Origin: Thermoleophilia bacterium
GTDB taxonomy: Bacteria > Actinomycetota > Thermoleophilia > Solirubrobacterales > 70-9
Assembly (NCBI GenBank): GCA_016649905.1
Contig: JAENWU010000005.1
Span: forward strand, 1-46,858
Direction: 5' to 3'
DNA: 46,858 bases
The notes under the pieces were generated by a model. That model worked only from the letters and a program-made list of their open reading frames with translations, did no database searches and was not told the DNA's origin. This document shows positions 3,891-31,218 of this stretch, piece by piece (position 1 is the first letter of the stretch; each line of letters begins with the position of its first letter). The position numbers and the translations under genes are program-made.

Positions 3891-5321
3891 TCAGACCAGC
3901 GAGGGAGCCGGGCTCGCCCGAGCGCTCGCCGTGATCGCCTCGATCAGAAAGCCGAAGAGCGATCGGCCCTGCAGCCGGCAGGTCTGGGAGACCGAGAGCA
4001 TCCGCTCGGCGAAGCGCTCCCCGGCCTCCGACTGGCTGCCGAGGGAGATCTTGCGGTAGATCACCGCGGAGCGAAGCCCGCGCTCGGCGCGGTTGTTGGT
4101 CGGCTCCACCCCCTCGACCTCGGTGAAGGTCCAAAGCGCCGGCCAGAGCTTCAGGAGGTTGCGGGCGAAGGTGCGGAAGCGGCGGTTGCGAGCGGTCTTC
4201 TTGCGATGGGGCTCCAGCAGCGCCCGCAGGCGCCGCTTGATCGGAGCGATCTCGCGGGCCAGGCGCTCGCGGTCGGCGTGCTCTGCGAAGCGATCCCAGG
4301 CGCCGAACAGCTCCCGGCAGATCGCAAGCCCTTCCTCCCCGAAGCGCCCCTGCCCGGCCAGGCCTTCGGAGTGGCGGCGGAAGTCGCGCAGCAGGTGCGC
4401 CCAGCAGACCTGGCGCCGCGCCGGGTCTAAGGAGTCATAGGCCCACCAGCGATCGGAGGAGACGATCCCCGCGAAGCCCTCCCCGATCAGCTCCGGCAGC
4501 TCGCGCTCGTGGCGATCGGCGGCGATGTGGAAGGCGGCGCGGGTGTCAGTGATTGCGCCGCAGAGGGTGCGCTTCTGACCGGCGCAGCGCCAACCGGTCT
4601 CATCGACCGAGAGCACCGGGGCGTCCTTGACCGCCTCGCGCAGCTCGGCGTAGGGAGAGGCCAAGGCGGTGGAGGCGCGCTGGCAGATCGCGTCGACCGA
4701 GCCGGTTGAGACCTGGGCGCCGAACAGCTCCCCGCAGAGCTCTGAGGCATCGCGGCGGGAGATCCGGTTGCGGACCGAGAGCAGGGCGATCGCCGCCGCC
4801 AAGCGGGGGCCGAAGGCACTGGCGCCGATCCCCTCGGGCAGGGTGGCCCGGGTGGCGTGCCCGCAGCCCGGGCAGCGCAGGGCGTGGGCGCGATGCTCGG
4901 TGACGGTGACCGCGATCGCCGGCAGCTCGGTGATCTGGTGGCGGTGGGGATTGCCGGCGGGCTCGTGCTCGCCGGAGTCGAGGTCGGCTCCGCAGCCCGA
5001 GCAGCTCGCCGGCCAGTGGTCGATCACCCGATCGAGCTGATCCTCGGCCACCAGCTTTCGGGTCTTGCCCTCGTGGCCGGGCTGGCCGCCCTGCTTGCGG
5101 GGGCTGGGCGAGCGCTCGGGCCCGGAGCGCTTGGCCGGCGGGTCGGCCGAGGGTGGTTGGGAGGAGTTCTGCGAGCTCTCGCGCAGCTTCTCCTCGAGAC
5201 GCTCGATCCGTGCCTCCAGGCGGGTGACCTGGCGCTCGTAGCGGGCGGTGAGCTCGATCAGGAACTCGACGCAGGCCTCGCGGCCTGCGTCATAGACGGC
5301 CTCGGCCTCGGCGCGCTCCAT
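3891..5321 (-). CDS. tnpC: IS66-family transposase (TnpC type)
   Basis: This 476-aa protein shows the full IS66 layout. An N-terminal coiled coil/leucine zipper (RYERQVTRLEARIERLEEKL) is followed by a Gln/Ser/Pro-rich linker (SSQNSSQPPSADPP) and a GQPGHEGKTR motif. Next comes a zinc-finger region with CSGCGADL and CPGCGHAT. The DDE catalytic core has Asp in SVDETGW (about residue 237), Asp in SSDRWWAY (about 289) and Glu in PTNNRAERGLR (about 412). The C-terminus has the IS66 tail (MLSVSQTCRLQGRSLFGFL). Length is normal and no frameshift is seen. It lies entirely inside the two terminal repeats, reading from right to left. Confidence 0.95.
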   Translation of the reverse strand: MERAEAEAVYDAGREACVEFLIELTARYERQVTRLEARIERLEEKLRESSQNSSQPPSADPPAKRSGPERSPSPRKQGGQPGHEGKTRKLVAEDQLDRVIDHWPASCSGCGADLDSGEHEPAGNPHRHQITELPAIAVTVTEHRAHALRCPGCGHATRATLPEGIGASAFGPRLAAAIALLSVRNRISRRDASELCGELFGAQVSTGSVDAICQRASTALASPYAELREAVKDAPVLSVDETGWRCAGQKRTLCGAITDTRAAFHIAADRHERELPELIGEGFAGIVSSDRWWAYDSLDPARRQVCWAHLLRDFRRHSEGLAGQGRFGEEGLAICRELFGAWDRFAEHADRERLAREIAPIKRRLRALLEPHRKKTARNRRFRTFARNLLKLWPALWTFTEVEGVEPTNNRAERGLRSAVIYRKISLGSQSEAGERFAERMLSVSQTCRLQGRSLFGFLIEAITASARASPAPSLV

Positions 5322-13607: not shown

Positions 13608-15586
13608 CCGAGGCAATCGTTTCCGAGCCGAACCTGCGCGATCTCACGGAGGAGGAGTTCGTCGAGCGCTACGGGGCCGGCCGCTTCACCTGCGGCGTCC
13701 TCGCCAACCGCGGTCGCTACGTCGCCGAGCACATCTGCACCGACCTGCTGCACCGAGCCTTCTCGCCGATCATCACCTTCTCCCAGGATTTCGTCGGCGC
13801 GATCGTCGGCCCACCCGAGCAGGACTACCCGCTGGCGGCGGTCAACAAGGGCAACGTCATATTCCTCGGCTCGCTTTCCACCGGGGTCCGCAACACCGTT
13901 TGGGAGTACGGGATCGAGCGACTGGAGCCCGGTGATCTGCTGATCTGCAACGACCCCTTCCGGGTCGGCAACCACGTCAACGACATGTGTTTCATCCGCC
14001 CCGTCTTCCACGCCGGGGAGATCGTCTCCTTCGTCGTCATCCGCGCCCACCAGCTCGACATCGGCGGCACCGTCCCCGGCGGCTTCTCGCTGATGAAGAA
14101 AAACGTCTACGAGAACGGCCTGGTGTTGGGCCCACAGTTGATCTTCCACCGCGACGAGCCGGTCAAGGAGCTGATGCGGACGATCCTTGACAACACCCGC
14201 TTCGGCGAGACGCTGCTGCCGGACTTCCACACGATCCGCTCCTGCTGCGCGCTCGGCGAGCGCCTCGTTCAGGACAGCATCGAGCGTTACGGGATCGAGG
14301 CCTACAAGGGCGCGATCCGCTACAACACCGACGCCTCGGCGGCCTCGATGCGGGCGGCGATCGCCTCGCTGCCGGACGGCGTCTACGAGGGCGAGGACAA
14401 GGTCGACAGCGACGGCGTCGACGCCGAGCAGGAGTACCGGGTCCACGTCAGCCTGACCAAGCGCGGCGAGCGTCTCGAGGTCGATCTCAGCGGCTCCTCG
14501 CCGCAGTCGCGGACCTCGCTGAACGCGACCGCGCTCGACGCCCAGACGGCGGTGGCGCTGGCGGTCAAGCTGGTCCTCGACCCATTCTCGCCGTTCACCT
14601 CAGGCATCTACCGCGACATCGACGTCCTCGTCCCGACCGGCAGCGTGATCGGCGCCGGCCCGCCCGCCGCGGTGATGTTCTACTTCGAGATTCAGTCGGT
14701 GCTGATCAACGCGATCCTCAGAGCCCTCGAGGCGCCGTTGGGGGAGCGGGCCGTGGCGGGCGCCTACGGTTCGACCAACCTTCACACCGGCGAGGGGCTC
14801 AATCCCGACGGCACACCCTGGTTCAGCGCCGCCGAGCTCGAGGCCCAATACGGCGCCTGGGGGGCCACCGATGCCGGCGACGGCAACAACCACTCCGGCC
14901 TGGCGACGCTGAACATGATCATGCCCTCGGTCGAGGAGATCGAGCCGCGGGTGCCGGCGATCATCCTCCACCGCGAGTACCTGCCCGACACCGCGGGCGC
15001 CGGCACCCACCGCGGTGGCGCCGGGCTGATGAAGCAGTCGCTCTTCCTCAGCGATGGCGACCACTACTTGGTGCCGCTGCACTTCCGCAGCGCCAGCGGC
15101 AGCGGCGTCTACGACGGTGGCGACGGCCGCGCCGGGGGCTCTTGGTTCTTCGAGGACGAGAGCTCCGACGCGACCACGCCGGTCTCGGAGTTTCGAATCC
15201 CGGACCCAGACGACTTCGATGGCTCGGCGGTCGTCTCCGGCGTCGTCGACCCGAGCAGCGGTCGGCTCGACCCCGAGGGCGAGTTCGCCTTCTTCGGGCG
15301 CCACCCGATCTGGAGCGAGCGCCGCGGCTCGGTGCTGCGCTGGATCACCAACGGCGGCGGCGGCTGGGGCGATCCGCTGAAGCGGGATCCGGAGGCCGTC
15401 AAGCGCGACGTCCGCGACGAATACGTCTCGATCGACGGCGCTCGTGACGACTACGGCGTCGTCGTCAGCGGCGATCCCGACGAGGACCCCGAGGGCCTCG
15501 AGGTCGACCTCGAGGCGACCGCGCGATGCAGGCGAGAGAAGAGCGCGGAACGAGCGCCGGGGCAGAACGTGGAGGGTGGACGATGA
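13604..15586 (+). CDS. HyuB-type subunit (hydantoinase B/acetone carboxylase alpha), module A
   Basis: This 660-aa protein is the HyuB partner. Family motifs include FSQDFVGAIVG near residue 60, the segment CNDPFRVGNHVNDM, HQLDIGGTVPGGF (His and Asp typical of the metal site), GDGNNHSG, and the glycine-rich GAGTHRGGAGL. The C-terminus has TNGGGGWGDPLKRDP and a DEYVS motif. Unlike the HyuB proteins of modules B and C it ends soon after that motif and has no zinc-binding extension. A separate 72-aa zinc-ribbon gene overlaps its stop instead. The subunit pair should form the catalytic complex that uses ATP to activate substrate or bicarbonate. Confidence 0.9.
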   Translation: MTEAIVSEPNLRDLTEEEFVERYGAGRFTCGVLANRGRYVAEHICTDLLHRAFSPIITFSQDFVGAIVGPPEQDYPLAAVNKGNVIFLGSLSTGVRNTVWEYGIERLEPGDLLICNDPFRVGNHVNDMCFIRPVFHAGEIVSFVVIRAHQLDIGGTVPGGFSLMKKNVYENGLVLGPQLIFHRDEPVKELMRTILDNTRFGETLLPDFHTIRSCCALGERLVQDSIERYGIEAYKGAIRYNTDASAASMRAAIASLPDGVYEGEDKVDSDGVDAEQEYRVHVSLTKRGERLEVDLSGSSPQSRTSLNATALDAQTAVALAVKLVLDPFSPFTSGIYRDIDVLVPTGSVIGAGPPAAVMFYFEIQSVLINAILRALEAPLGERAVAGAYGSTNLHTGEGLNPDGTPWFSAAELEAQYGAWGATDAGDGNNHSGLATLNMIMPSVEEIEPRVPAIILHREYLPDTAGAGTHRGGAGLMKQSLFLSDGDHYLVPLHFRSASGSGVYDGGDGRAGGSWFFEDESSDATTPVSEFRIPDPDDFDGSAVVSGVVDPSSGRLDPEGEFAFFGRHPIWSERRGSVLRWITNGGGGWGDPLKRDPEAVKRDVRDEYVSIDGARDDYGVVVSGDPDEDPEGLEVDLEATARCRREKSAERAPGQNVEGGR

Positions 15587-19828: not shown

Positions 19829-20725
19829 GTGTTCGCCGCCGACGCTCAGGTCCGACGCCGTTCTTGCCTCTCCGTGCCCGCCTCGTCGGCCAAGATGATG
19901 GCCCGAGCCCGCGAGATCGAGGTCGACGAGGTGGTGCTCGATCTCGAGGACTCGGTGGTCCCCGAAGCCAAGGAGAGCGCGCGCTCGGCCGCAGCCGCAG
20001 CCCTGATGGTGGGACCGTGGAAGGCTCCCGTGCTCAGCGTCCGAGTCAACGCCCCGCGCTCGCCCTGGTGCGCGGCGGACCTGCTCGCGCTCGCCGCCCT
20101 GCCCGAAGCGCCGCTGGCGGTCGTCCTTCCCAAGGTCGAGAGCGCCGGCGACCTCGCCTTCGCCGATCGTCTCCTCGACGGCGCCGAAGCGACTGTGCTG
20201 CGGCGGGGTCCACTGCGACTGCAGGCCCTTATAGAGACTCCGGCGGGACTTGCCGCCGCGACCGAGATCGCCACCTCCTCCAAGCGCCTGGAAGCGCTGA
20301 TCCTCGGTTACGCCGACCTCGGCGCGGCGCTGGGACGCTCCACGCGGGGCGCCCAGAACCTCGACCTCTGGCTCGCCGCCCAGGACGCGGTTCTGGGCGC
20401 GGCGCGAGTGGGAGGCCTGCAGGCGATCGATGGGCCCTACCTCGGCACCGCCCCGGATGCCGGGTTCCGAGCCGCCGCCGAGCGCGCCCGCGATCTCGGC
20501 TTCGACGGCAAGTGGGCGATTCATCCCTCGCAGCTGCAGGTGCTCGAGTCGCTGTTCACCCCAACCACGACGGAGCTGGAGCAAGCTGAGGCGGTGATCG
20601 AGGCGTTGCGACGGGCCGAGCTCGAGGGTTCGGCGGGCGCCGTCGCGCTCAATGGCGACATGCTCGACGAGGCCGTCGCCGCGGCCGCATGGGGAATTCT
20701 GGCGCGGGCGGGTCGGGGCCGTTAG
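19829..20725 (+). CDS. CitE/Mcl-type acyl-CoA lyase (malyl-CoA, beta-methylmalyl-CoA or citramalyl-CoA lyase)
   Basis: This 298-aa HpcH/HpaI-family lyase makes or breaks a C-C bond between an acyl-CoA and glyoxylate or pyruvate. Family landmarks are RRSCLSVPASSAKMM near the start (Arg contacting substrate), VLDLEDSVVPEAKESAR, the metal-binding Glu of ALIETPAGL, the Asp of LGYADLGAALG, and GKWAIHPSQL. Length fits single-domain CitE-like lyases. The next gene, abutting its stop, is a mesaconyl-CoA hydratase-like protein, and an Mct-like isomerase lies 8 kb away. The trio suggests beta-methylmalyl-CoA or citramalyl-CoA chemistry rather than citrate lyase, whose other subunits are absent. A GTG start with a leaderless promoter is proposed. 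Confidence 0.85.
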   Translation: MFAADAQVRRRSCLSVPASSAKMMARAREIEVDEVVLDLEDSVVPEAKESARSAAAAALMVGPWKAPVLSVRVNAPRSPWCAADLLALAALPEAPLAVVLPKVESAGDLAFADRLLDGAEATVLRRGPLRLQALIETPAGLAAATEIATSSKRLEALILGYADLGAALGRSTRGAQNLDLWLAAQDAVLGAARVGGLQAIDGPYLGTAPDAGFRAAAERARDLGFDGKWAIHPSQLQVLESLFTPTTTELEQAEAVIEALRRAELEGSAGAVALNGDMLDEAVAAAAWGILARAGRGR

Positions 20726-21745
20726 GTGAGCGCCGCAGCCATCACCCTGCAGCCGGTCGGCGGCCCCTTCTTCGAGGAGCTGGAGGTCGGCCAGCGGATC
20801 GACACCGCCCCGGCGATGACGCTGACCCCAGGCCACGCGGCGCTGCACCAGGCGATCGTCGGTGATCGCCTGCGGCTGCCGCTCGACGCCTCTCTCAGTA
20901 CTGCCGTCAGCGGCGACGAGCGGCAGCTCGCCCACCCGGGCCTGGTCTGGGACGTCGCGATCGGCCAGTCGACGCTGCTCACCCAGCGGGTGATCGCCAA
21001 CCTCTTCTACCGCGGCCTGGTGCTGCATCGCCAGCCGCGGCTCGGCGACACCCTGCGCACGACGGTCGAGGTCGGCGCGCTGCGCCAGAACAGTCCTCGT
21101 CCGGGTCGGGGGGGAACCGGCCTGGCGGCGCTGCGGGTGCGCACGGTCGACCAGGAGGAGCGCTCGGTTCTGGACTTCTGGCGCTGCGCGATGCTGCCGC
21201 TGCGCGACCCCGAGGCGGAGACCGGCCACGCCGACGATCTCGACTCGATCCCGGCTGCACTCGACCTCGCAGCGGTGCGTTCCTCGCTCGCGGGCTGGCG
21301 GCTCGGCGCCTTCCGCGAGCTCGTCCCCGGGCCCCACTTCGAAGACCTCGAGCTCGGCAGCCGCTGGTCGATCGCCGCCGGAGACGTCGTCAGCGCCGCT
21401 CCGGAGTTGGCGCGGATGACGCTCAACCTGGCGATGGCCCACCACGACGCCGACGCGTCGGGGCGCGGCCGGCGTCTCGTCTACGGCGGCCAGACGATCG
21501 GCCTCGCCGCCTGCCACGTGTCGCGAGCGCTCCCGAGCCTTGTCGCTTATGCCGCCTGGCATGCGTGCGACCACCTTGGCCCGGTCTTCGAGGGCGACAC
21601 CCTGCACTCCGAGGTCGAGCTGGAGCAGACCGAAGCGCTTGCGGGCGGCGGTGGGCTGGTGCACCTCGTGGTCAGGACCAGCGCGCGACGGGACGGCGAG
21701 GATTTTGAGGTTTTGAGCTGGCGGCCGGTGGCGGTGATGGCGTGA
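20726..21745 (+). CDS. mch: Double-hotdog (MaoC-like) hydratase, mesaconyl-CoA hydratase-like
   Basis: This 339-aa protein has two hotdog repeats, each opening with a FEEL/FEDLELG motif (PFFEELEVGQRID at about 14 and HFEDLELGSRW at about 207). The order of landmarks matches my memory of mesaconyl-C1-CoA hydratase (Mch) from Chloroflexus: GDTLRTTVEVGALRQN, DFWRCAMLPLRDP, LNLAMAH and GRRLVYGGQTIGLA. Mch interconverts beta-methylmalyl-CoA and mesaconyl-C1-CoA. The start GTG directly follows the lyase stop, so the two are one operon, consistent with sequential steps. It could instead act on a related 2-methyl-3-hydroxyacyl-CoA. No alignment was run. Confidence 0.75.
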   Translation: MSAAAITLQPVGGPFFEELEVGQRIDTAPAMTLTPGHAALHQAIVGDRLRLPLDASLSTAVSGDERQLAHPGLVWDVAIGQSTLLTQRVIANLFYRGLVLHRQPRLGDTLRTTVEVGALRQNSPRPGRGGTGLAALRVRTVDQEERSVLDFWRCAMLPLRDPEAETGHADDLDSIPAALDLAAVRSSLAGWRLGAFRELVPGPHFEDLELGSRWSIAAGDVVSAAPELARMTLNLAMAHHDADASGRGRRLVYGGQTIGLAACHVSRALPSLVAYAAWHACDHLGPVFEGDTLHSEVELEQTEALAGGGGLVHLVVRTSARRDGEDFEVLSWRPVAVMA

Positions 21746-21759
21746 GCCAGAGCCGCTTC

Positions 21760-21788
21760 TTGACAACGGTTGAGGCGAGGAATAATCT
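21760..21788 (+). promoter_or_regulatory. Promoter of the module B HyuAB operon
   Basis: TTGACA (21760-21765), exact 17-bp spacer and TAATCT (21783-21788), the best -35/-10 pair I see in the window. Transcription would start near 21795, giving a leader of about 77 nt before the HyuA ATG. Confidence 0.7.
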
Positions 21789-21802
21789 CGGCCTTCGCCT
21801 GT

Positions 21803-21812
21803 ACCGATCGGT
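21803..21812. promoter_or_regulatory. Palindrome ACCGATCGGT downstream of the HyuAB promoter
   Basis: A 10-bp perfect palindrome about 15 bp past the -10 box, in the expected position of a repressor operator. No regulator gene is adjacent in module B, so the binding protein is unknown. Confidence 0.4.
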
Positions 21813-21871
21813 CGGAACTTTGGGAATAAGGGAACTACAGGTGCGACGCTGGGTCGCCCGAGAGGGGAAAT

Positions 21872-24004
21872 ATGAGCACGGCTAAAAGCAACGGCGCGAC
21901 GGTCAACGGGGACGCTTCCGGAGGCAGCGAGGCCTTCGTCGGCGTCGACGTCGGCGGTACCCACACCGACGTGCAGGTGATCATGGGCAGCCTCGAAGCC
22001 CGCGGCAAGGCACTCACCACCTACGACGACTTCAGCCGCGGAGTCCTCGGCGCCGTCGGCGTCGCCGCCGAGAACCTCGGCGTCTCGCTCGAAGAGCTGC
22101 TCGGCTCGACCCAGCTGCTGGTCAACGCGACCACGGTCGTCACCAACGCGATCACCCAGCTCAGCGGCGCCGATGTCGGCATCCTCGTCACCCGCGGCTT
22201 CCGTGACGAGTTCCGCTTCGCCGGCGGACCCCGCATCCGCAACGTCGACGACCACGTCCAGACCAACGTCCCGGACATCGTCAAGCGCGCCAACATCCTC
22301 GAGGTCGAGGAGCGCACCGAGTTCTCCGGCGAGGAGCTGGTGCCGCTCTCCGAGGAGGGCGTGCTCGAGGCGGCGCGGGTGCTGGTCGAGGAGAACGGGG
22401 TCAGCGCGATCGCGATCTGCTTCCTCTCCAGCTACAGCAACGGTTCGCACGAGCAGCAGGCGGCGGAGCTGATCGAAGCCAAGTACCCCGAGATCTTCGT
22501 CACCCCCTCGCACCGGGTCAGCTCGGTTCGCGGCGAGTACCCGCGCTGGATGACGGCGGTGCTGAACTGCTTCGTCCACGAACACGCGAAGGGCTTCCTC
22601 AACGCGCTCGGGACCAAGCTCCACGAGGCCGGGCTGCGGGGCAGCGTCGCCTTCTTCCAGGGCCTCGGCGGCGGCGTCAGCCAGGGCCGGGCCGAACAGC
22701 TGCCACTGACCCTGCTCGGAGCCGGGCCCGCCGGCGGCGCCACCGGTGCCAACGAGCTGGCGCGGCGGATGGGCCACGACCGGGTCCTGCTCGGGGACAT
22801 GGGCGGGACCAGCTTCGACACCGGCCTGATCTACGACAACGTCATCCACATCGAGAAGGACGTCAAGGTCGGCCGCTTCAAGACCTCGCTGCCGCTGGTC
22901 GACGTGATCTCGGTCGGCGCCGGCGGCGGCAGTATCGCTTGGATCAGCGAGCGCGGGGTGCCGCAGGTCGGCCCCCAGAGCGCCGGCTCGACCCCGGGCC
23001 CGGCCGCCTACAACAACGGCGGCACCGAGCCTACGGTCACCGACGCGATGATCGCGATGGGACTGATCGACCCCGGCAACTACCTCGGCGGCCGGGTCGA
23101 ACTGCGCAGCGATCTCGCCGCCGACGCCCTGCGTCGGTTCGGAGAGCCGATGGGCTGGGGCGTCGAGGAGGCCGCCGCCGCGGTCCACGATCTCGTCGTC
23201 ACCAACATGGCCAACGCGGTGCGCGAGGTCAGCGTCTCGCACGGCTACGACCCGCGGGAGTTCGTCTTCTACGCCTACGGCGGCACGATGCCTTGGTTCG
23301 CGGCGGAGATCGCCAACGTGCTCGGGATCGGCACCGTCCTGGTCCCCCACAGCAGCTCGGTCTTCTGCGCCCGCGGCCTGCTGGTCTCCGACTACGTCCT
23401 CCGCAACGACCAGACCCTGCAGTCGGCGCTCGACGGCACCGAGGAGGTCGCCCGGGTCAACCAGGTCGCCCGCGAGCTGGTCGCGGCCGGCGAGCAGAGC
23501 ATGCGCGAGGAGGGGTTCTCGGCCGACTCGATCGAGATCGCCCGTAGCGCCGACTTCCAGTTCGCCGGCCAGGTCCACGCGCTGCCGATGCCGCTGCCCG
23601 ATCGCGAGCTCAGCGCCGACGACGTGCCGGGGCTGAAAGAGAAATTCAACGAGGTCTACGAACGGACCTACGGCAAGGGAACCGCCTGGCCGGACGCGCC
23701 GCCGCAGATGCTCAACTACTCGGTCACCGTCACCGGCAAGCTGCCGCGTCCCTCGATCGAGGAGCGGCCGCTGGAACCGAGCGAGCAGTCCGAGATGCTG
23801 CGCAGCGAACGCGAGGTCTACCTACCGACCGAGCGCAAGCGCGAGGTGATCCCCGTCTACGACGAGACGAAGGTGACTCCCGGCAGCAGCATCGAGGGCC
23901 CGGCTTTGGTCGAGGCGGTTGACACGACCCTCTTCGTCCCGCGCGGCATCAGCGCCGAGCGCGACCAGCTGATGAACATCGTCCTGAGCACGAAGGAGGC
24001 GTAG
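21872..24004 (+). CDS. HyuA-type subunit, module B
   Basis: This 710-aa HyuA-family protein has the phosphate motif VGVDVGGTHTDVQV (about residues 23-36), a second motif LLGDMGGTSFDTGLIY and the glycine-rich VGAGGGSIAWI with PQSAGSTPGPAAYNNGG. It has a short Gly/Ser-rich N-terminal extension. It is strongly similar along its whole length to the module C HyuA (for example KALTTYDDFSRGVL and FFQGLGGG are shared), clearly a recent paralogue compared with module A. ATP binding is expected. A GAGGGG lies upstream of the ATG. HyuB starts directly after its stop. The substrate is unknown. Confidence 0.9.
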   Translation: MSTAKSNGATVNGDASGGSEAFVGVDVGGTHTDVQVIMGSLEARGKALTTYDDFSRGVLGAVGVAAENLGVSLEELLGSTQLLVNATTVVTNAITQLSGADVGILVTRGFRDEFRFAGGPRIRNVDDHVQTNVPDIVKRANILEVEERTEFSGEELVPLSEEGVLEAARVLVEENGVSAIAICFLSSYSNGSHEQQAAELIEAKYPEIFVTPSHRVSSVRGEYPRWMTAVLNCFVHEHAKGFLNALGTKLHEAGLRGSVAFFQGLGGGVSQGRAEQLPLTLLGAGPAGGATGANELARRMGHDRVLLGDMGGTSFDTGLIYDNVIHIEKDVKVGRFKTSLPLVDVISVGAGGGSIAWISERGVPQVGPQSAGSTPGPAAYNNGGTEPTVTDAMIAMGLIDPGNYLGGRVELRSDLAADALRRFGEPMGWGVEEAAAAVHDLVVTNMANAVREVSVSHGYDPREFVFYAYGGTMPWFAAEIANVLGIGTVLVPHSSSVFCARGLLVSDYVLRNDQTLQSALDGTEEVARVNQVARELVAAGEQSMREEGFSADSIEIARSADFQFAGQVHALPMPLPDRELSADDVPGLKEKFNEVYERTYGKGTAWPDAPPQMLNYSVTVTGKLPRPSIEERPLEPSEQSEMLRSEREVYLPTERKREVIPVYDETKVTPGSSIEGPALVEAVDTTLFVPRGISAERDQLMNIVLSTKEA

Positions 24005-26194
24005 ATGACCACCACGACGCACGATCCGGTTTCGGTCGAGATCCACCGCAAGGCGCTCGAGAACATCACCAACGAGATGGCGATCACGCTGACCCGGACC
24101 TCCGGCTCGCCGGTCGTCTACGAGGTCCAGGACTTCGCCACCTGCCTGATGGACACCGAGGGCGAGCACCTCAGCATGTCGGCGACGATCCTCTTCCACG
24201 CCGGCTCCTCGCTGTTGGGGACGCAGGCCGTGATCGCTTCGCTGGAGGACGGCGAGGAGGTGCGGCCGGGCGACGGCTGGATCGTCAACGACCCGTTCGA
24301 GGGCGGCGCCATGCACCAGGGCGACGTCGCGATCATCATGCCCCAGTTCTACGAGGACAAGCACATCGGCTGGGCTTTCTCGAACGTCCACGTCGCCGAC
24401 GTCGGCGGCATGGGGATCTCCGGCTTCGCCCCGGGTGCCGTCTCCGTCTACGACGAGGGGCTGCGCTTCGTCTCGACCAAAATCATCAGCGACGGCATTC
24501 TCGACCGCGGCTGGGAACGCCACCTGCAGTCGAACGTCCGCGTTTCCAACCTGCTGCTGAACGACCTCCGCGGCATGATCGCCGCCAACAACGTCGCCCA
24601 GCAGAAGCTGACCGAGGTGGTCTCCCGCTTCGGCTACGAGCGCTTCGTCGAGTACTGCGAGATCAACAAGACGCTGAGCGAGGAAGCCTTCCGCGAGCGG
24701 ATCCAGAAACTGCCTGACGGCGTCTACAAGACCTCGGAGTGGGTCGAGTTCGACGGCCACGGCGAGGACCTGCTGCTCGAGGTGGAAGTGACGATGGAGG
24801 TCGACGACTCCGACATCCGCTTCGACTTCGTCGCCGACGAGCAGACCGACGCCTTCATCAACGGCACCCGCGGCGTCGCCTACGGCAGCCTGATGACGAC
24901 GTTCCTGACCACGCTCGCCTACGGCGACCTGCCCTTCAATGCGGGCATGTGGAGGCCGTTGACGATCAACATCGGCGACGAGGGCACGGTCGTCAACGCG
25001 GTGCCGCCGGCGCCGCTCAGCGCCGCCCACTCGACCGCCGGCATGCGCGTCACCCGCGCCGTCAAGGACCTCCTCAACCAGGCCTGCGCCAACAGCGAGG
25101 ACCCGGTGATTCGCGGCCGGGTCGGCGGCATGGCCGCCGACGGCGTCTGCTTGGTGCCGCTGGTCGGGATCGGTCGCGGCGGTGCCCCCACCGTCGTCTT
25201 CTTCATGGACAACGTCACCGGCAACGGCGGCGGCGCCCAGAGCATCATCGACGGCCAGGATTGCTACGGGATCACGATCGGCCCGGGGGTCGGGCTCGGC
25301 AGCATCGAGACCAACGAGGCCTCGCAGCCGGCGCTCTACCTGTGGCGCAAACTGGTCCAGAACTCGGGCGGTCCCGGGATTCACCGCGGCGGCCAGGGGC
25401 TGGAGATCGCCTACGCCGTCCACGGCACCGGTCAGCTCGACGGCGCCGTCGCCTTCACCTGTGCGGAGATTCCCAGCCGCGGGGCGGGCGGCGGCTATCC
25501 CGCCGGCACCGGCTCCTGGTCGGCGACCCACGGCACCAACGTGATCGCCGACCTCGAGGCCGGCAGGCAGACCCACGAGGAGACGCTCACCGGCGACTCG
25601 CCGCCGGTGCCCTCGAACCTCGGCCGGCTGCACCTCGGCCGCGGTGACGTGATCCGCGTCGGTGGCGGCGGTGGTGGCGGCGTCGGCGACCCGCTCCTGC
25701 GCGACCCCGAGCTGGTCGCCACCGACGTCGCCGACGAGTACGTGACCGCCGACAACGCCCGCGCCGCCTACGGCGTCGTGATCGGCGAGGACGGAGCGGT
25801 CGATGCGAAGGCGACCGAGGATCTACGCGCCGAAGTCCGCGCCGACCGGATCGGCGCCAAGCCCGCGAGCTCCCAGGGCCTCCCGGAGACGGCGGGGATC
25901 TCGGTCTCGATCGCCGGCGACGGCCACTGGCACTGCGCCTACTGCGACGGCGACCTCGGCCAGGGCGACGGCGATTGGCGCCAGCAGGCGGTCAGCCGCG
26001 AAGCCTCGATCTCCGAGCGCCTCGCCGAGTCGGAGATGCACGTGCGGCTGCGGCAGGGCGCCGGGCCGGTGATGATCGCCGAGCACTACTGCCCGGAGTG
26101 CGCCGGGCTCTTGCTCGCCGACCTCTTCCCCGAGGGCTTCACCGCGCTCCACGTGCCGAAGCTGAAGCGCGCCGGCGCCGCGCTCGAGGTCTAA
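24005..26194 (+). CDS. HyuB-type subunit with fused C-terminal zinc domain, module B
   Basis: This 729-aa protein has the HyuB core to about residue 590: FHAGSSLLGTQ, WIVNDPFEGGAMHQGDV, NVHVADVGGMGISGF, GGGGGGVGDPLLRDP and the DEYVTAD end motif. It then extends about 110 residues with a four-cysteine zinc site: Cys644/Cys647 (CAYC) and Cys696/Cys699 (CPEC), closing with LLLADLFPEGF. This extension resembles the small gamma subunit of acetone-carboxylase-type enzymes fused onto alpha; that comparison is inferred. The module A HyuB lacks it. The gene directly follows HyuA with no gap. Confidence 0.9.
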   Translation: MTTTTHDPVSVEIHRKALENITNEMAITLTRTSGSPVVYEVQDFATCLMDTEGEHLSMSATILFHAGSSLLGTQAVIASLEDGEEVRPGDGWIVNDPFEGGAMHQGDVAIIMPQFYEDKHIGWAFSNVHVADVGGMGISGFAPGAVSVYDEGLRFVSTKIISDGILDRGWERHLQSNVRVSNLLLNDLRGMIAANNVAQQKLTEVVSRFGYERFVEYCEINKTLSEEAFRERIQKLPDGVYKTSEWVEFDGHGEDLLLEVEVTMEVDDSDIRFDFVADEQTDAFINGTRGVAYGSLMTTFLTTLAYGDLPFNAGMWRPLTINIGDEGTVVNAVPPAPLSAAHSTAGMRVTRAVKDLLNQACANSEDPVIRGRVGGMAADGVCLVPLVGIGRGGAPTVVFFMDNVTGNGGGAQSIIDGQDCYGITIGPGVGLGSIETNEASQPALYLWRKLVQNSGGPGIHRGGQGLEIAYAVHGTGQLDGAVAFTCAEIPSRGAGGGYPAGTGSWSATHGTNVIADLEAGRQTHEETLTGDSPPVPSNLGRLHLGRGDVIRVGGGGGGGVGDPLLRDPELVATDVADEYVTADNARAAYGVVIGEDGAVDAKATEDLRAEVRADRIGAKPASSQGLPETAGISVSIAGDGHWHCAYCDGDLGQGDGDWRQQAVSREASISERLAESEMHVRLRQGAGPVMIAEHYCPECAGLLLADLFPEGFTALHVPKLKRAGAALEV

Positions 26195-26196
26195 GC

Positions 26197-27750
26197 GTGG
26201 CGGCCACCGGCGTCGGCTACTCGGTTGCCGACCTGATCCGCAAGGGACCCCTCTCGAGGCAGGGTCCCGAGCGGATCGCGCTGGTGTTCGGCGAGCGTCA
26301 GGTCAGCTACGGGGAGCTCGACCAACGCAGCGACCGGGTTGCGGCCGGCCTCGCCGAGGCCGGCTTCGCCAAGGGCGAACGGGCGGCGATCCTCTCCTAC
26401 AACTCGGTTGAGTTCGTCGAGATCTTCTTCGCCGTCGCCAAGCTCGGCGGCATCCTGGTCCCCGTCAACTACATGTTGCGCCCGGCCGAGGTGGAGTACG
26501 CGCTGGCGGACTCCGGCGCAACCTGGCTGTTCGCCGACGAGCACGGGATCGAGGTCGCCGCCGGCGTCCTCGACGACCATCCCGAGGTGCGGGCAATCGG
26601 GATCGGCACCGCCGCCGGGGGGAGGGGAATCGCCTACGAGGAGCTGGCCGCATCGACCGGGCCCGCGCCGGGCCTCGATCTGGTCTCGCCGAGCGACGTG
26701 CTGCTGCTCCAGTACACCTCCGGGACCACCGGCTTCCCCAAGGGCGCGACCCACACCCACGCCACCGTCCTCTTCAACGCGATGCACCAGGTCCCCGACT
26801 TCAAGCTCACCGAGGACGACGTCTACATCTGCGCGCCGGCCCTCTGCTGGGCGGCCGGGCTGCACAACATCGTGATGCCGCTGTGGTGGATCGGCGGCCG
26901 CGTCGTCCTGCAGCCGAGCGGCGGCTTCGACCCCGACGGCCTCTGCGAGGCGATCGCCGCCGAGGGTGGCACGGTGATGATCGTCGTCGCCTCGGTGCTC
27001 TCGCGGCTGGTCTCCTCCGGCGCCCTCGAGCGCCACGACCTCTCGCGGCTGCGGCTGCTCGCGACCGGGGGCGAAGCGGTATCCCTGCAGATGTTGGAAA
27101 CGGTGCGCGGGGCGCTGCCGCAGACCGACGTTCTCCAGGTCTACGGCCAGTCGGAGTTCCCGACCCTGATGGCGCTGCTCAGCGCCGACCGGGCGCTCGA
27201 GAAGCCCGCCTCGACCGGCAAGGCGACTTCGCTCTGCGAACTGCGCGTGGTCGACTCCGAGGGCCGTGAGCTGCCCCCGAACGAGCACGGTGACATCATC
27301 TGCCGCTCACCGGCGACGATGATCGGCTACTGGGAAAAGCCCGAGCAGACCGCGGCGACGATCGTTGACGGCTGGCTCTGGACCGGTGACCGCGGTTACA
27401 CGGACGAGGACGGCTTCCTCTACATCGCCGGTCGCAGCAAGGAGATGTACATCAGCGGCGGCCTCAACGTCTATCCGGCCGAGATCGAGGTGGTGCTGGC
27501 GTCTCACCCCGACGTCAGCGAGGCCGCGGTCAGAGGCGTCCCGCACGATTCCCTGGGGGAGGTCGGTTGCGCCTTCGTCGTCGGCGAAGGCCTCGACCTC
27601 GAGCAGGTCGAGGCCTTCTGCCGCGAGCGCCTCGCCACCTACAAAGTGCCGAAGAGTTGGGTGCTGCGGGCCGAGCCGCTGCCGCGAACCGCCTCCGGCA
27701 AGCCGGAAAAGCACCGGCTCGAGGTCTCCGCGGAGACGGCCGGGGCTTGA
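26197..27750 (+). CDS. Acyl-CoA ligase (ANL superfamily), module B
   Basis: This 517-aa AMP-forming ligase has the P-loop YTSGTTGFPKGATHTH, the motif VYGQSEFPT, WLWTGDRGYTDEDGF, GRSKEMYISGGLNVYPAEIE and the catalytic Lys in TASGKPEKHRLEV. It begins at a GTG two bases after the HyuB stop and overlaps the next gene's start (TTGA). It resembles the module C ligase, including the QSEFPT/MSEFPT element, more than that of module A. It should activate the acid produced or consumed by the preceding HyuAB pair. The substrate is not known. Confidence 0.92.
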   Translation: MAATGVGYSVADLIRKGPLSRQGPERIALVFGERQVSYGELDQRSDRVAAGLAEAGFAKGERAAILSYNSVEFVEIFFAVAKLGGILVPVNYMLRPAEVEYALADSGATWLFADEHGIEVAAGVLDDHPEVRAIGIGTAAGGRGIAYEELAASTGPAPGLDLVSPSDVLLLQYTSGTTGFPKGATHTHATVLFNAMHQVPDFKLTEDDVYICAPALCWAAGLHNIVMPLWWIGGRVVLQPSGGFDPDGLCEAIAAEGGTVMIVVASVLSRLVSSGALERHDLSRLRLLATGGEAVSLQMLETVRGALPQTDVLQVYGQSEFPTLMALLSADRALEKPASTGKATSLCELRVVDSEGRELPPNEHGDIICRSPATMIGYWEKPEQTAATIVDGWLWTGDRGYTDEDGFLYIAGRSKEMYISGGLNVYPAEIEVVLASHPDVSEAAVRGVPHDSLGEVGCAFVVGEGLDLEQVEAFCRERLATYKVPKSWVLRAEPLPRTASGKPEKHRLEVSAETAGA

Positions 27751-28778
27751 AGGCCGGGATCTGGGAGGGCGGCGGCACGATCTCCTGCGGCGAGGTCGAG
27801 CAGCCGCAGCCGGGAGCGGGGGAGCTGCTGGTCGAGATCGCCTACTGCGGCGTCTGCGGCACCGACCTGCACATCCTCGACGGCAAGTTCGATGTCGGCC
27901 CGCCGCCCCAGGTGCTCGGCCACGAGGCCTCTGGGGTGGTCGTCGCCGGCGGTCCCGAGACCGACCCCGAGCTGATCGGCAGGGCGGTCGGCCTCAACCC
28001 GATCGGCCCCTGCGGCGTCTGCGTCTGGTGTCGCGCCGGGCACCCGACCCACTGCCGCAACCCTTATTACAGCGCCAGCGCCTACGCCGAGTACGCCCTC
28101 TACCGACCCCAGCAGCTGTTTCCGCTGCCCGCCGGCGTGTCGCTGCCCGGCGCCGCCCTGCTCGAGCCCTGGGCGACGGCGCTGCGCGCGGCCGAGGCGG
28201 CGCGGCTGCGGGCGGGGGAGAACGTGTTGGTGATCGGCGGCGGCTCGCTCGGCCTGCTGGTCGCCTCGGCGGCGCGCGTGCTCGGCGCCGCCACCGTCAC
28301 CGTCTCCGAGCCGCGCCGCCGCAATCGCGAGCTCGCTCTGGCTCGCGGCGCCACGGCCGCGGTCGATTCCGCCGAGGCGGATCTCGCTGCTCTGGCCGCC
28401 GCGACCGGCGAGCTGCGCGGCTTCGACGTCGTCTTCGAAGTCGCGGGGGCCACGGCGGCGCTGGAGCAGGCGCCGGCCCTGCTGCGGCGCGGCGGCAGGC
28501 TGGTCGTGCTCGGGGTCTTCGGTGCCGAGGTCACCGTCCCGGTGGCGCCGACCCAGCTGACCGATCGTGAGCTGACGATCCTCGGCTCCTTCGGCGGCGG
28601 CGGCAGCTTCGGCCGCGCCGCCTCGCTGCTGTCGGCGGTCGACGCCGCCTCGCTCGTCACCGCGGTCGAGCCGCTCGCGGGGATCGCCGAGCTGTTCGGC
28701 CGGATCCGCGCCGGCGAGGAGATCAAGGGGATGATCCAGCCGGGCCGCGGAGAAAGCGTCGGCGCCCAGCAGGCCTAG
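27747..28778 (+). CDS. Zinc-dependent alcohol dehydrogenase (MDR family)
   Basis: This 343-aa medium-chain dehydrogenase oxidises an alcohol or reduces a ketone with NAD(P). Catalytic zinc ligands are the Cys of CGVCGTDLH and the His/Glu of LGHEASG. The structural zinc lobe is intact: four Cys in CGVCVWCRAGHPTHC. The Rossmann motif is VIGGGSLGLLVASAA. It starts at a TTG overlapping the ligase stop, so the genes are translationally coupled. Its last four bases (CTAG) are shared with the stop codon of the convergent mct gene. Its likely role is producing or removing the ketone handled by HyuAB. Confidence 0.9.
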   Translation: MKAGIWEGGGTISCGEVEQPQPGAGELLVEIAYCGVCGTDLHILDGKFDVGPPPQVLGHEASGVVVAGGPETDPELIGRAVGLNPIGPCGVCVWCRAGHPTHCRNPYYSASAYAEYALYRPQQLFPLPAGVSLPGAALLEPWATALRAAEAARLRAGENVLVIGGGSLGLLVASAARVLGAATVTVSEPRRRNRELALARGATAAVDSAEADLAALAAATGELRGFDVVFEVAGATAALEQAPALLRRGGRLVVLGVFGAEVTVPVAPTQLTDRELTILGSFGGGGSFGRAASLLSAVDAASLVTAVEPLAGIAELFGRIRAGEEIKGMIQPGRGESVGAQQA

Positions 28779-30010
28779 ACCGGGCTCGGGGCGCCGATCG
28801 CGACGACGCCGTCGTCATCGAGCCTGCCGATCTCGGTCGGGCTGAGGCCGAGGACCTCGGCGAGGATCTGCTCGGTGTGCTCGCCGAGGGCAGGGGCGCG
28901 GCGGACCGGCACCCGTCCTGCGGCCGAGAAGTCCAGCGGCGAGCCGGGCATCAGGTAGCTGCCGACGCCGGGATGCTCGACCGTCTCGAACATCGGGTTC
29001 GCGGGCGAGCAGCGCGGGTCCTCCGTGGTCAGTTGACGGAAGGTTTGGTAGGGGCCCCAGGAGACGCCGGTGCTGGCGAAGGCCTCGCGGGTCGTCCCCA
29101 GGTCGCGGCTCGCGAACCACGGCCGCAGCAGCGCCGCGATCAGGTCGCGGGCTTCGAAGCGGCCGCTCTCGGTGCTGAGGTCGTGGCCGGTGACGCGCTC
29201 GATCCCGGCGCACGCCTCGCCGATCTCGGTCACCTCCTGCAGGGCGCTCCACTGCCGCGCGGTCAGCGCGACCACCATCAGGCGGCGGCCGTCGCGGGTC
29301 TCGAAGTCGTGCCCGAAAGCGCCGTAGAGGTAGTTGCCGTCCTTCGGGTTGTCCCTACCGCCGAGCGTCGCCTCGGCGATCCGGCCGAGGTTGCCGACCA
29401 TCGCGAAGGCGACGTCGGAGAGTGAGAGCCGGACCTGCTGGCCCTCGCCGCTCTGGCCGCGACGTCGCTCCGCGGCCAGGAGGCCGACCGCCGCCAGGGT
29501 GCCCATCGCCACGTCCCAGGCGGGGAGGACGCTGTTGAGCGGCTCGGCAAGGTTGCGCGGCCCAGTCGCCCAGGGGAACCCGGTCGCCGGGTTGACGGTG
29601 TAGTCGACCTCGCTGGTGCCGTCCGGGTTGCCGGTCAGGGCGACCATGATCAGGTCGCGCCTGCGCTGCCGCAGGGACTCGTAGTCGAGCCAGCCGCGGG
29701 CCGGGAAGTTGGTCAGGAAGGTCCCGGCTTCGGTGCCCGGGGCGGTGATCAGCGCCAGCGCCAGCTCCCTGCCCTCGGGCCGACGCAGGTCGAGCTCGAT
29801 CGAGCGCTTGCCCTTGTTGAGGCCAGCCCAGAAAAGGCTCTGGCCGTCGCCGGCCAGCGGCCAACGACCGTGGTCGAGGCCGCCGCCGATCTGGTCGAAG
29901 CGGATCACGTCGGCGCCGAGCTGGGCCAGCGTCATCCCGCCCAAGGGGGCCGCGACGAAGGCCGAGCCCTCGACCACCCGCAGGCCCGCCAGTACCCCCT
30001 TGCCGTCCAT
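28775..30010 (-). CDS. mct: 2-methylfumaryl-CoA isomerase (mesaconyl-CoA C1-C4 CoA transferase), family III CoA transferase
   Basis: This 411-aa family III CoA transferase matches my memory of Mct from the 3-hydroxypropionate bicycle at several diagnostic stretches: VVEGSAFVAAPLGGMTLAQ near the start, FWAGLNKGKRS, FLTNFPARGWLDYESL, SEVDYTVNPATGFP, and GSYLMPGSPLDF near the end. The catalytic Asp is probably Asp166 in VLPAWDVAMG. Mct moves CoA within mesaconyl-CoA from C1 to C4. It is transcribed with the upstream thiolase (11-bp gap) against the direction of the lyase/hydratase operon. The ATG at 30010 starts the conserved region; longer frames upstream overlap the thiolase. General CaiB-type transfer is the alternative. 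Confidence 0.82.
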   Translation of the reverse strand: MDGKGVLAGLRVVEGSAFVAAPLGGMTLAQLGADVIRFDQIGGGLDHGRWPLAGDGQSLFWAGLNKGKRSIELDLRRPEGRELALALITAPGTEAGTFLTNFPARGWLDYESLRQRRRDLIMVALTGNPDGTSEVDYTVNPATGFPWATGPRNLAEPLNSVLPAWDVAMGTLAAVGLLAAERRRGQSGEGQQVRLSLSDVAFAMVGNLGRIAEATLGGRDNPKDGNYLYGAFGHDFETRDGRRLMVVALTARQWSALQEVTEIGEACAGIERVTGHDLSTESGRFEARDLIAALLRPWFASRDLGTTREAFASTGVSWGPYQTFRQLTTEDPRCSPANPMFETVEHPGVGSYLMPGSPLDFSAAGRVPVRRAPALGEHTEQILAEVLGLSPTEIGRLDDDGVVAIGAPSPV

Positions 30011-30021
30011 CGACGCCGGAC

Positions 30022-31218
30022 TCAGCTGGCGGGCCTGTAAACGGTGACGACGGCGGCGCCGCCGAGGCCGATGTTGTGCTGCAGCGCCACCTTGGCGCCA
30101 TCGACCTGGCGTTCGTCGGCCTTGCCCCGCAGCTGCCAGTTCAGTTCCGCGCACTGAGCGAGGCCGGTGGCGCCGAGCGGGTGGCCCTTGGAGATCAGGC
30201 CGCCCGAGGGGTTGATCACGGGGCCCTCGCCGCCGTAGGTGACGGCCTCGGTCTCGACCAGCTTCTGCCCTTCGCCCTCGCCGGCGAATCCCAGCGCTTC
30301 GTAGCTGATCAGCTCGTTGGTGCTGAAGCAGTCGTGCAGCTCGCAGACGTCGACGTCCTCGGGGCCGACTTCGGCCTCCTCGTAGGCCTGGCGGGCCGCC
30401 TCGCGGCTCATCTCGGAGCCGACGATCTTGATGCAGTCGGTGTCGACGGCGAAGGTCGAGGAGAGGTCGGTGACCATCGCCTGGCCGACGATCTCGATCG
30501 CCTGATCCCAGAGGTCATGCTCGTCGACGAAGCGCTCGGAGGCGACGATCGCGGCGGCGCTGCCGTCGCTGGTCGGCGAGCACTGCAGCTTGGTCAGCGG
30601 CTCGTGGATCATCCGCGAGGCCTGGATCTCCTCCAGCGTGTAGACGTCTTGGAACTGCGCGTAAGGGTTGTTGGCCGAGTGCTTATGGTTCTTCCAGGCG
30701 ATCCAGGCGAAGTGCTCGGGGGTCGAGCCGTAGCGCTGCATGTGGTCGCGTCCGGCGTTGCCGAACATTTCCGGCGCGAAGGGGTGCCCCTCGGGTGAGC
30801 GCAGTTCGGCCATGCGGTCGGTGTGGCGGCCGAGCGGGTTGGCGCGGTCCTCGTATCCGACGCCGAGCGAGCCGCGCTGCATCTTCTCGAAGCCGACCGC
30901 GAGAGCGCACTCGGCGAGGCCGCCCTTGACCGCCTCGCGGGCCATCAACAGCGCCGAGGAGCCGGTCGAGCAGTTGTTGTTGACGTTGACGATCGGGATC
31001 CCGGAGAGGCCGAGGCCGTAGACGGCGCGCTGGCCCGCGGTCGAGTCGCCATAGCAATAGCCCGCTGCGGCCCGCTCGATCTCCGCGTAGGGGACACCCG
31101 CGTCCTCGAGAGCCTTCGAGCCCGCCTCCTCGACCCAGTCCGGGTAGTCGCCGGCCTTGCTGCCCGGCTTGTCGAACTTGGTCATGCCGACCCCGATCAC
31201 GTAGGTGCGATTGCTCAT
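30022..31218 (-). CDS. SCP-x-type thiolase (lipid-transfer/acetyl-CoA acetyltransferase)
   Basis: This 398-aa protein is a thiolase of the SCP2/SCP-x group. The nucleophilic Cys lies in [13 protein letters not shown], followed by [10 protein letters not shown] and [11 protein letters not shown] with a glycine-rich end ([12 protein letters not shown]). The group cleaves branched or sterol-type 3-ketoacyl-CoAs. GAGGAAA lies immediately upstream of the ATG. It is first in a two-gene minus-strand operon with mct. In module B it would release acetyl- or propionyl-CoA from the ligase product, and propionyl-CoA is a substrate of the lyase-hydratase-isomerase sequence. Confidence 0.9.

What the first reader, a model, noticed from the sequence alone, without database searches (positions are those of the whole stretch)
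19829..30010. Partial glyoxylate-assimilation half of the 3-hydroxypropionate bicycle: Mcl-, Mch- and Mct-like genes
Seen: a CitE/Mcl-type lyase and an Mch-like double-hotdog hydratase are adjacent (19829-21745), and a protein with Mct diagnostic stretches lies at 28775-30010. Known: in Chloroflexus, propionyl-CoA + glyoxylate go through beta-methylmalyl-CoA, mesaconyl-C1-CoA, mesaconyl-C4-CoA and citramalyl-CoA to acetyl-CoA + pyruvate; Mcl performs the first and last steps. Missing here: an obvious mesaconyl-C4-CoA hydratase (Meh). Inference: propionyl-CoA released by the neighbouring thiolases may be assimilated with glyoxylate, or the genes degrade mesaconate/citramalate. Finding this in an actinobacterial heterotroph's catabolic island would be unusual.
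Basis: partly seen in the sequence, partly recalled or inferred. Interest (0 to 1): 0.75.

Follow-up and report, generated by a model that had tools for sequence, protein, structure and literature searches.

The report
Three-gene mesaconyl-CoA cleavage module
An actinobacterium carries three genes that probably turn a branched five-carbon intermediate into pyruvate and acetyl-CoA, and in its lineage the usual middle enzyme seems to have been replaced by one from a hydratase family whose function is unknown.

Summary

MCT (28775-30010, minus) is close to mesaconyl-CoA C1-C4 transferase: TIGR04253 558 bits, next family 103, but under the curated cut-off of 725; 58-61% identical to Chloroflexales Mct.

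HYD (20726-21745) is a double-hotdog hydratase nearer Rv0216 (323 bits) than Mch (92-94), with most of the Mch active site.

LYASE (19829-20725) is a CitE-type lyase with all seven checked catalytic residues.

In 396 genomes of the phylum, 22 have MCT and 22 HYD, 17 both. In 39 of 41 other loci with both, HYD lies on MCT's strand, directly upstream. Two loci carry LYASE-HYD gene fusions. HYD and the known Meh family never share an MCT neighbourhood (0 of 96), so HYD probably fills the 'missing' Meh step.

The genome's Chloroflexus-type Mcl and an apparent ethylmalonyl-CoA pathway lie elsewhere. Isocitrate lyase and malate synthase were not found.

Most likely: mesaconyl-C1-CoA to acetyl-CoA + pyruvate. 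Mct in Actinobacteria is already in print; the HYD substitution and the fusions I did not find in my nine paper searches. Nothing was assayed.

The parts
19829..20725 (+). LYASE: CitE/HpcH-type C-C lyase; proposed citramalyl-CoA (or beta-methylmalyl-CoA) lyase
   Evidence: Pfam HpcH_HpaI 126 bits; NCBIfam RipC_Ccl 174 bits (cut-off 375), citE 165 (cut-off 443); profile of the group best matches malyl-CoA lyases 5ugr 265 and 4l9y 243, then 3qll 189; residues D38, E40, D41, R72, E136, D163, D280 kept
20726..21745 (+). HYD: double-hotdog hydratase of the Rv0216 family; proposed mesaconyl-C4-CoA hydratase standing in for Meh
   Evidence: 2bi0 323 bits, 4e3e 94, 8hgn 92; model pLDDT 85, Foldseek 2bi0 E 2e-37, 8hgn E 2e-27; active-site residues
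28775..30010 (-). [quoted passage not shown]
   Evidence: TIGR04253 558 bits, cut-off 725; 7xkg/8apq 540/538 bits; Asp165, Arg47, Tyr136, Asp135, Asn100 and Leu43 of Mct kept
30022..31218 (-). SCPx/lipid-transfer type thiolase directly upstream of MCT on the same strand; not a conserved part of the module
   Evidence: NCBIfam PRK08256 629 bits, over its cut-off of 436

Best explanation
LYASE, HYD and MCT are one metabolic module that converts mesaconyl-C1-CoA into acetyl-CoA and pyruvate (or runs the reverse): MCT moves CoA from C1 to C4 of mesaconate inside one closed active site; HYD adds water to mesaconyl-C4-CoA to give citramalyl-CoA; LYASE splits citramalyl-CoA. HYD thus takes the place of the FAS1-type Meh/Ich hydratase, with which it shares no detectable sequence similarity; it was recruited from the Mch-like double-hotdog superfamily. 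In this organism mesaconyl-C1-CoA most likely comes from an ethylmalonyl-CoA pathway encoded elsewhere in the genome. Shown by sequence: the gene identities at family level, the active-site residues, the co-occurrence, the gene order in relatives, the fusions. Inferred: every reaction, its direction, and the link to the ethylmalonyl-CoA pathway.
For: (1) MCT keeps the catalytic Asp, the carboxylate-binding Arg and Tyr and the Leu gate that PMC9813914 names for intramolecular transfer. (2) HYD keeps Asn85, Arg142, Asn226, His231, Tyr248, Gly249 of Mch in 40 of 40 rows (residues from PMC10164722). (3) Co-occurrence in 396 genomes of the phylum: MCT 22, HYD 22, both 17, expected 1.2; in the 14 genomes of the window's family and order the same 5 have both and 9 have neither. 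(4) HYD and Meh exclude each other: within 8 kb of MCT, HYD in 42, Meh in 23, both in 0 of 96 loci; of the 22 MCT genomes 17 have HYD, 4 have Meh, 1 neither, none both. The Meh profile matches the itaconyl-CoA hydratase PaIch at 298 bits, an enzyme with mesaconyl-C4-CoA hydratase activity (PMC12290011, passages). (5) LYASE and HYD are fused in one ORF in two loci, without Ns, with MCT directly behind. (6) Neighbours other than HYD, MCT and LYASE are not conserved. (7) A single Mch-like hydratase can act on mesaconyl-C4-CoA: the Haloarcula enzyme has kcat/Km 2.0 on C4 and 6.9 on C1 (PMC5592240, passages). (8) The own genome has Ccr (504 bits, cut-off 379), a mutase, an acyl-CoA dehydrogenase in two pieces, a MaoC protein and a Chloroflexus-type Mcl, so mesaconyl-C1-CoA and its hydration and cleavage to propionyl-CoA + glyoxylate are plausibly covered without HYD and LYASE.
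Against: MCT misses the equivalog cut-off (558 of 725), as do all actinobacterial hits (0 of 396 over it). Arg314 of Mct, given a role by simulation in PMC9196870, is Gly here and Arg in only 1 of 42 HYD-partnered rows, against 15 of 17 rows with Mch. HYD is homologous to Mch, not to Meh, so it may act on the C1 ester. The LYASE profile is nearer to malyl-CoA/beta-methylmalyl-CoA lyases than to the citramalyl-CoA lyase type. Ccr is no marker of MCT across the phylum: only 6 of 22 MCT genomes have it, and it is in 14 of 14 genomes of the family and order, with or without MCT. 10 of the 17 co-occurring genomes are of one family (f30), and the four f30 MCTs of these looked at in the residue listing have Ala or Ser at the Leu43 gate. 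One of the 41 genomes with a window-type MCT also has a Meh-family gene (G422, 236 bits). FAS1-type hydratase domains of other subfamilies exist in the own genome (8 hits). In the window the module is split.
Confidence: 0.6

Rival explanations
1. One reading: LYASE condenses propionyl-CoA and glyoxylate, HYD dehydrates beta-methylmalyl-CoA to mesaconyl-C1-CoA (true Mch role), MCT moves CoA, and another enzyme (for example the MaoC protein next to the Ccr cluster, or an unrecognised FAS1-type protein) hydrates mesaconyl-C4-CoA; the Chloroflexus-type Mcl then cleaves citramalyl-CoA.
For: HYD belongs to the Mch superfamily and keeps its active site; the LYASE group profile matches 5ugr and 4l9y best; the MaoC protein C136:4051-4566 matches the RipB/Ich model at 121 bits (cut-off 340).
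Against: HYD replaces Meh, not Mch, across MCT neighbourhoods; isocitrate lyase was not found in 39 of 41 genomes with a window-type MCT; Mcl and a MaoC candidate for Mch already stand in an ethylmalonyl-CoA type cluster.
Confidence: 0.2
2. One dual-function hydratase and one dual-function lyase: HYD does both hydration steps and LYASE both C-C steps, so that three proteins run the whole glyoxylate-assimilation branch.
For: Haloarcula Mch acts on both mesaconyl-CoA isomers (PMC5592240); Chloroflexus Mcl is trifunctional (PMC3832036); LYASE-HYD-MCT stand alone in loci such as L027, L049 and L056.
Against: The own genome keeps a separate Chloroflexus-type Mcl, which would make a dual LYASE redundant.
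Confidence: 0.2
3. The module serves catabolism of the island in which it lies: methyl-branched C5 dicarboxyl-CoA units made from the island's substrate (BVMO, three HyuA/HyuB pairs, ligases, thiolases) are drained to acetyl-CoA + pyruvate.
For: LYASE-HYD lie in line with BVMO and HyuAB genes and MCT with an SCPx thiolase; L050, L051 and L054 also lie among catabolic-looking genes.
Against: No island gene other than LYASE recurs in more than 4 of 46 loci, and other loci lie among genes of other kinds.
Confidence: 0.3

Closest known systems
Glyoxylate-assimilation half of the 3-hydroxypropionate bicycle (Chloroflexus, Roseiflexus, Accumulibacter)
   Same: Mct at 58-61% identity with its catalytic residues; a CitE-type lyase and a hotdog hydratase beside it
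   Different: The hydratase is of the Rv0216 family; no classical Mch and no Meh beside MCT; Mcl is on another contig; LYASE is only about 30% identical to Mcl
Itaconate/methylsuccinate degradation cluster (Ict-Ich-Ccl)
   Same: The last two steps, mesaconyl-C4-CoA hydration and citramalyl-CoA cleavage (PMC12290011, PMC9875883, passages)
   Different: Ich is of the Meh family, HYD is not; CoA is moved inside the molecule by MCT and not activated from a free acid
Ethylmalonyl-CoA pathway
   Same: Mesaconyl-C1-CoA as shared intermediate; Ccr, a mutase, MaoC and Mcl in this genome
   Different: In the known pathway mesaconyl-C1-CoA goes on to propionyl-CoA + glyoxylate; here a side exit to pyruvate is proposed
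Rv0216 (PDB 2bi0), double-hotdog protein of unknown function
   Same: HYD's nearest solved relative (323 bits; 51% identity in the Foldseek alignment); same active-site residues in family-f30 relatives
   Different: In f30 genomes HYD and the MCT-like gene are far apart or unlinked (G074), and those MCTs differ at the Leu43 gate

Membership tests
Mct (2-methylfumaryl-CoA isomerase, TIGR04253) | Score over the curated equivalog cut-off (725 bits) | tested here: not met
   558 bits; a Chloroploca Mct scores 788; 0 of 396 genomes of the phylum pass
Mct (2-methylfumaryl-CoA isomerase, TIGR04253) | Catalytic Asp165, carboxylate-binding Arg47 and Tyr136 | tested here: met
   D166, R49, Y137; 42 of 42 HYD-partnered rows
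Mct (2-methylfumaryl-CoA isomerase, TIGR04253) | Leu/Ile at position 43, said to be conserved in intramolecular enzymes (PMC9813914) | tested here: met
   Leu in the window; Leu 41 and Ile 1 of 42
Mct (2-methylfumaryl-CoA isomerase, TIGR04253) | Arg314 of the second subunit (simulation in PMC9196870) | tested here: not met
   Gly in the window; Arg in 1 of 42
Mct (2-methylfumaryl-CoA isomerase, TIGR04253) | Intramolecular C1-C4 transfer activity | not testable with these tools
   needs an assay
Mch (mesaconyl-C1-CoA hydratase) | Active-site residues Asn85, Arg142, Asn226, His231, Tyr248, Gly249 | tested here: met
   40 of 40 HYD rows
Mch (mesaconyl-C1-CoA hydratase) | Phe71 at the substrate | tested here: not met
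   Phe in 17 of 17 Mch rows, Ile in 40 of 40 HYD rows
Mch (mesaconyl-C1-CoA hydratase) | Match to Pfam MC_hydratase / NCBIfam 2-methylfumaryl-CoA hydratase | tested here: not met
   23.2 of 26.5 bits; 19.8 of 560 bits for the haloarchaeal model (that model gives Chloroploca Mch only 48)
Meh/Ich (mesaconyl-C4-CoA hydratase, FAS1 type) | Sequence homology | tested here: not met
   hhalign HYD against Meh 1.7%
Mcl (malyl-/beta-methylmalyl-/citramalyl-CoA lyase) | Mg-binding and catalytic residues (Asp42, Glu44, Asp45, Arg76, Glu141, Asp168, Asp299 of the Rhodobacter enzyme) | tested here: met
   all seven kept in LYASE (residues from PMC3832036)
Mcl (malyl-/beta-methylmalyl-/citramalyl-CoA lyase) | Asn58 diagnostic of the Chloroflexus group | tested here: not met
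   LYASE has Asp; the protein on contig C202 has Asn
Ethylmalonyl-CoA pathway | Crotonyl-CoA carboxylase/reductase | tested here: met
   504 bits, cut-off 378.55
Ethylmalonyl-CoA pathway | Ethylmalonyl-CoA mutase and methylsuccinyl-CoA dehydrogenase specificity | tested here: inconclusive
   general mutase model passed (acid_CoA_mut_N 458 bits); general acyl-CoA dehydrogenase hits in two pieces at contig ends

The most novel reading that the evidence does not exclude
A glyoxylate-free way to assimilate acetyl-CoA: the ethylmalonyl-CoA pathway makes mesaconyl-C1-CoA, and MCT-HYD-LYASE turn it into acetyl-CoA + pyruvate, so that acetyl-CoA + CO2 gives pyruvate without isocitrate lyase, malate synthase or glyoxylate; HYD, a member of the Rv0216 family, is a new kind of mesaconyl-C4-CoA hydratase, which would give that family its first reaction.
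Probability: 0.35. Interest if true: 0.78.

Novelty: new variant of a known kind. Interest (0 to 1): 0.6.

Why it matters
If right, it explains why genome surveys find Mct but no complete bicycle in Actinobacteria: the C4 hydration step is done by an enzyme that the usual annotation does not recognise. It gives a testable reaction to the Rv0216 family, solved in 2005 and still called a conserved hypothetical protein, and suggests a short route from the ethylmalonyl-CoA pathway to pyruvate. The Phe-to-Ile change shared by 40 of 40 HYD rows is a concrete candidate for the switch between the C1 and C4 esters.

Tried and rejected
A HYD-MCT gene fusion in L074 looked like strong evidence, but the reading frame runs through a run of Ns; it is an assembly artefact. 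Coupling of MCT to Ccr looked strong in the genomes with window-type loci (30 of 41 over cut-off), but the control over the phylum shows no enrichment (6 of 22 MCT genomes; 115 of 396 in all), so it is used only as evidence that mesaconyl-C1-CoA is likely available in this genome. No such control was run for isocitrate lyase and malate synthase, so their absence may be a trait of the whole lineage. The first HYD alignment (A4) held L081 in a wrong frame and was replaced by A6. The structure model of MCT was poor (pLDDT 58.6) and was not used. I considered LYASE as the genome's Mcl and dropped it after finding the C202 protein. A malyl-CoA thioesterase was looked for in the third CitE protein (contig C6): it has Asp, not the Glu of that group. 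An early note gave Arg314 as kept in 0 of 42 rows; the recount gives 1 of 42.

The table of 41 genomes mixes 37 with HYD near MCT in the fetched locus and 4 without (L053, L054, L060, L061). Thresholds for the phylum counts (MCT E<=1e-100, HYD E<=1e-40, Meh E<=1e-25) were my choice. Loci L030/L078 and L028/L063 are the same DNA and are counted twice in the 96 and in the 42 (not in the 46).
Full report
What is there. The window is the whole contig C200 of a 2.9 Mb assembly in 212 contigs, 91.73% complete. LYASE (19829-20725, +) and HYD (20726-21745, +) are adjacent; MCT (28775-30010, -) lies 7 kb away with an SCPx-type thiolase upstream of it on the same strand. Around them are a BVMO-like flavoprotein, three HyuA/HyuB pairs, acyl-CoA ligases and dehydrogenases and a sugar-type ABC transporter (HyuA/HyuB identities partly from similarity between the copies).

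MCT. TIGR04253 gives 558 bits, under its cut-off of 725, but the next family gives 103. The Roseiflexus and Chloroflexus structures match at 540 and 538 bits, the next protein at 91; identity to Roseiflexus and Chloroploca Mct is 61 and 58%. Asp165, Arg47, Tyr136, Asp135 and Asn100 are kept in 42 of 42 MCTs that have HYD nearby, and position 43 is Leu in 41 and Ile in 1; Leu or Ile there is described as shared by the intramolecular enzymes (PMC9813914, section 17 and passages). Arg314 is not kept (1 of 42; 15 of 17 in MCTs beside Mch).

HYD. The best solved relative is Rv0216 (323 bits); Mch-type structures follow with 94 and 92 bits. Profile comparison with classical Mch gives 99.8% probability over 320 columns, with Meh 1.7%. 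A model (pLDDT 85) matches 2bi0, 8hgn and 4e3e best. Of the residues named for M. extorquens Mch (PMC10164722, passages), Asn85, Arg142, Asn226, His231, Tyr248 and Gly249 are kept in 40 of 40 HYD rows; Ser79 is Thr in 28 and Ser in 12; Phe71, Phe in 17 of 17 Mch rows, is Ile in 40 of 40 HYD rows.

LYASE. A CitE-type lyase with the seven residues conserved in malyl-CoA lyases (residues from PMC3832036, passages). NCBIfam gives RipC 174 and citE 165 bits, both under cut-off. The group profile is nearest to malyl-CoA lyases 5ugr and 4l9y, then 3qll (that 3qll is a RipC protein is recalled). The genome's Chloroflexus-type Mcl is another protein, on contig C202: 486 bits to 6kin and 4l7z (that these are the Roseiflexus and Chloroflexus enzymes is recalled), 62% identical to the Chloroploca Mcl, with the Asn diagnostic of that group.

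The three genes as a unit. Of 396 genomes of the phylum, 22 have MCT (E<=1e-100), 22 HYD (E<=1e-40), 17 both (Fisher p 2e-21; relatedness is not corrected for, and 10 of the 17 are of family f30; without the listed f30 genomes 7 of 10 and 12). In the 14 genomes of the window's own family and order, 5 have both and 9 neither (p 5e-4). Of 42 loci with HYD within 8 kb of MCT, the window is the split one; in 39 of the other 41 HYD is directly upstream on the same strand. LYASE is within 8 kb of MCT in 11 of these 42; in the window it is just beyond that limit. A LYASE-group match of 250 bits or more exists in 30 of 41 genomes with a window-type MCT, linked or not. In L062 and L080 LYASE and HYD are one ORF (48-49% and 50% identity to the window proteins, no Ns), with MCT overlapping or within about 20 bases. 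Among genes near 46 such loci, only MCT (41 loci), HYD (32) and LYASE (9) form clusters in more than 4 loci (gene calling is rough, so these are low counts).

HYD in place of Meh. I defined Meh by position: in Chloroploca (L110) the gene lies beyond two CaiB-like genes from mct, as meh (Caur_0180) lies beyond smtAB in C. aurantiacus (PMC3150298, passages). The Meh profile matches the itaconyl-CoA hydratase PaIch (298 bits), and itaconyl-CoA hydratase has mesaconyl-C4-CoA hydratase activity (PMC12290011, passages). Within 8 kb of MCT, 42 of 96 loci have HYD, 23 Meh, 31 neither (two of the 31, L071 and L074, have HYD cut by a contig end or an N gap), none both. Of the 22 MCT genomes of the phylum, 4 of the 5 without HYD have Meh, and 0 of the 17 with HYD do. 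On the MCT tree the three partner states (HYD, Meh, Mch+) need 4 changes (quick tree), so partners were exchanged more than once. Of 43 genomes searched (41 with a window-type MCT, 2 controls) Meh was found in the 2 controls and one Mesorhizobium. Classical Mch scores about 700 bits in the 2 controls; the best elsewhere are 171 and 169 bits (G430, G426), and the own genome's best is HYD itself (89 bits).

Metabolic setting. In the 41 genomes isocitrate lyase was found in 2, malate synthase in 11, Ccr over its cut-off in 30; the own genome has only Ccr. It also has a mutase (C136), a MaoC protein (C136:4051-4566), acyl-CoA dehydrogenase pieces at the ends of C136 and C202, and Mcl on C202; in G404 the same set (Mcl, dehydrogenase, MaoC, mutase, Ccr) stands within 11 kb. 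This is the look of an ethylmalonyl-CoA pathway. In Accumulibacter, Ccr, a mutase, a long acyl-CoA dehydrogenase, Meh, MCT, Mcl and Mch lie within 15 kb. But Ccr is no marker of MCT across the phylum (6 of 22). So: HYD and LYASE are not needed for the ethylmalonyl-CoA pathway itself, and the reaction that MCT makes necessary, mesaconyl-C4-CoA hydration, is the one for which HYD is the only partner found.

What is in print. PMC9802188 (passages) reports 2-methylfumaryl-CoA isomerase and other bicycle enzymes in Actinobacteriota (27 MAGs, mean completeness 68.6%) and proposes assimilation of organic substrates. Partial bicycles in heterotrophs are known (Kentron symbionts, PMC6593406, passages). 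Searches (listings; thirteen papers opened for passages or sections) showed no report of an Rv0216-type protein with Mct, of the fusion, or of the pyruvate exit from the ethylmalonyl-CoA pathway in Actinobacteria. The library holds open-licence papers only.

Verdict. The reading as half of the bicycle is right in kind, but the missing hydratase is probably HYD, the lyase is not Mcl, and the setting is probably the ethylmalonyl-CoA pathway. New variant of a known kind.

Noticed in passing
window 11559-15586, 21872-26194, 35281-39587: Three HyuA/HyuB-like pairs (hydantoinase/oxoprolinase families) in one contig, the second and third apparently close paralogues; substrate unknown.
   Followed up: no
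window 3894-5321: IS66-type transposase at the edge of the catabolic island.
   Followed up: no
L184, L185, L186, L187, L190 (family f30 genomes): Rv0216-type HYD relatives with the same active-site residues co-occur with an MCT-like gene elsewhere in the genome; the f30 MCTs checked have Ala or Ser at the Leu43 gate, so their reaction may differ.
   Followed up: partly
G403:C95:41257-45644; similar hits in G396:C11 and G400:C1: Two half-length Mch-like MaoC hits next to a CitE gene; in G403 also a Ccr-like gene (290 bits, under cut-off).
   Followed up: no
L183 (Accumulibacter): Ccr, a mutase, a long acyl-CoA dehydrogenase, a second Mch-like protein, Meh, Mct, Mcl and Mch within 15 kb: an apparent union of the ethylmalonyl-CoA pathway with the glyoxylate-assimilation branch.
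   Followed up: partly
L053: MCT beside a single-domain MaoC protein and a CitE-type lyase, without HYD or Meh: a possible third hydratase type.
   Followed up: no
G408:C74:17904-19744: A LYASE-group match next to a full-length Mch-type hit, apart from the genome's MCT locus (L060), much as in the window.
   Followed up: no
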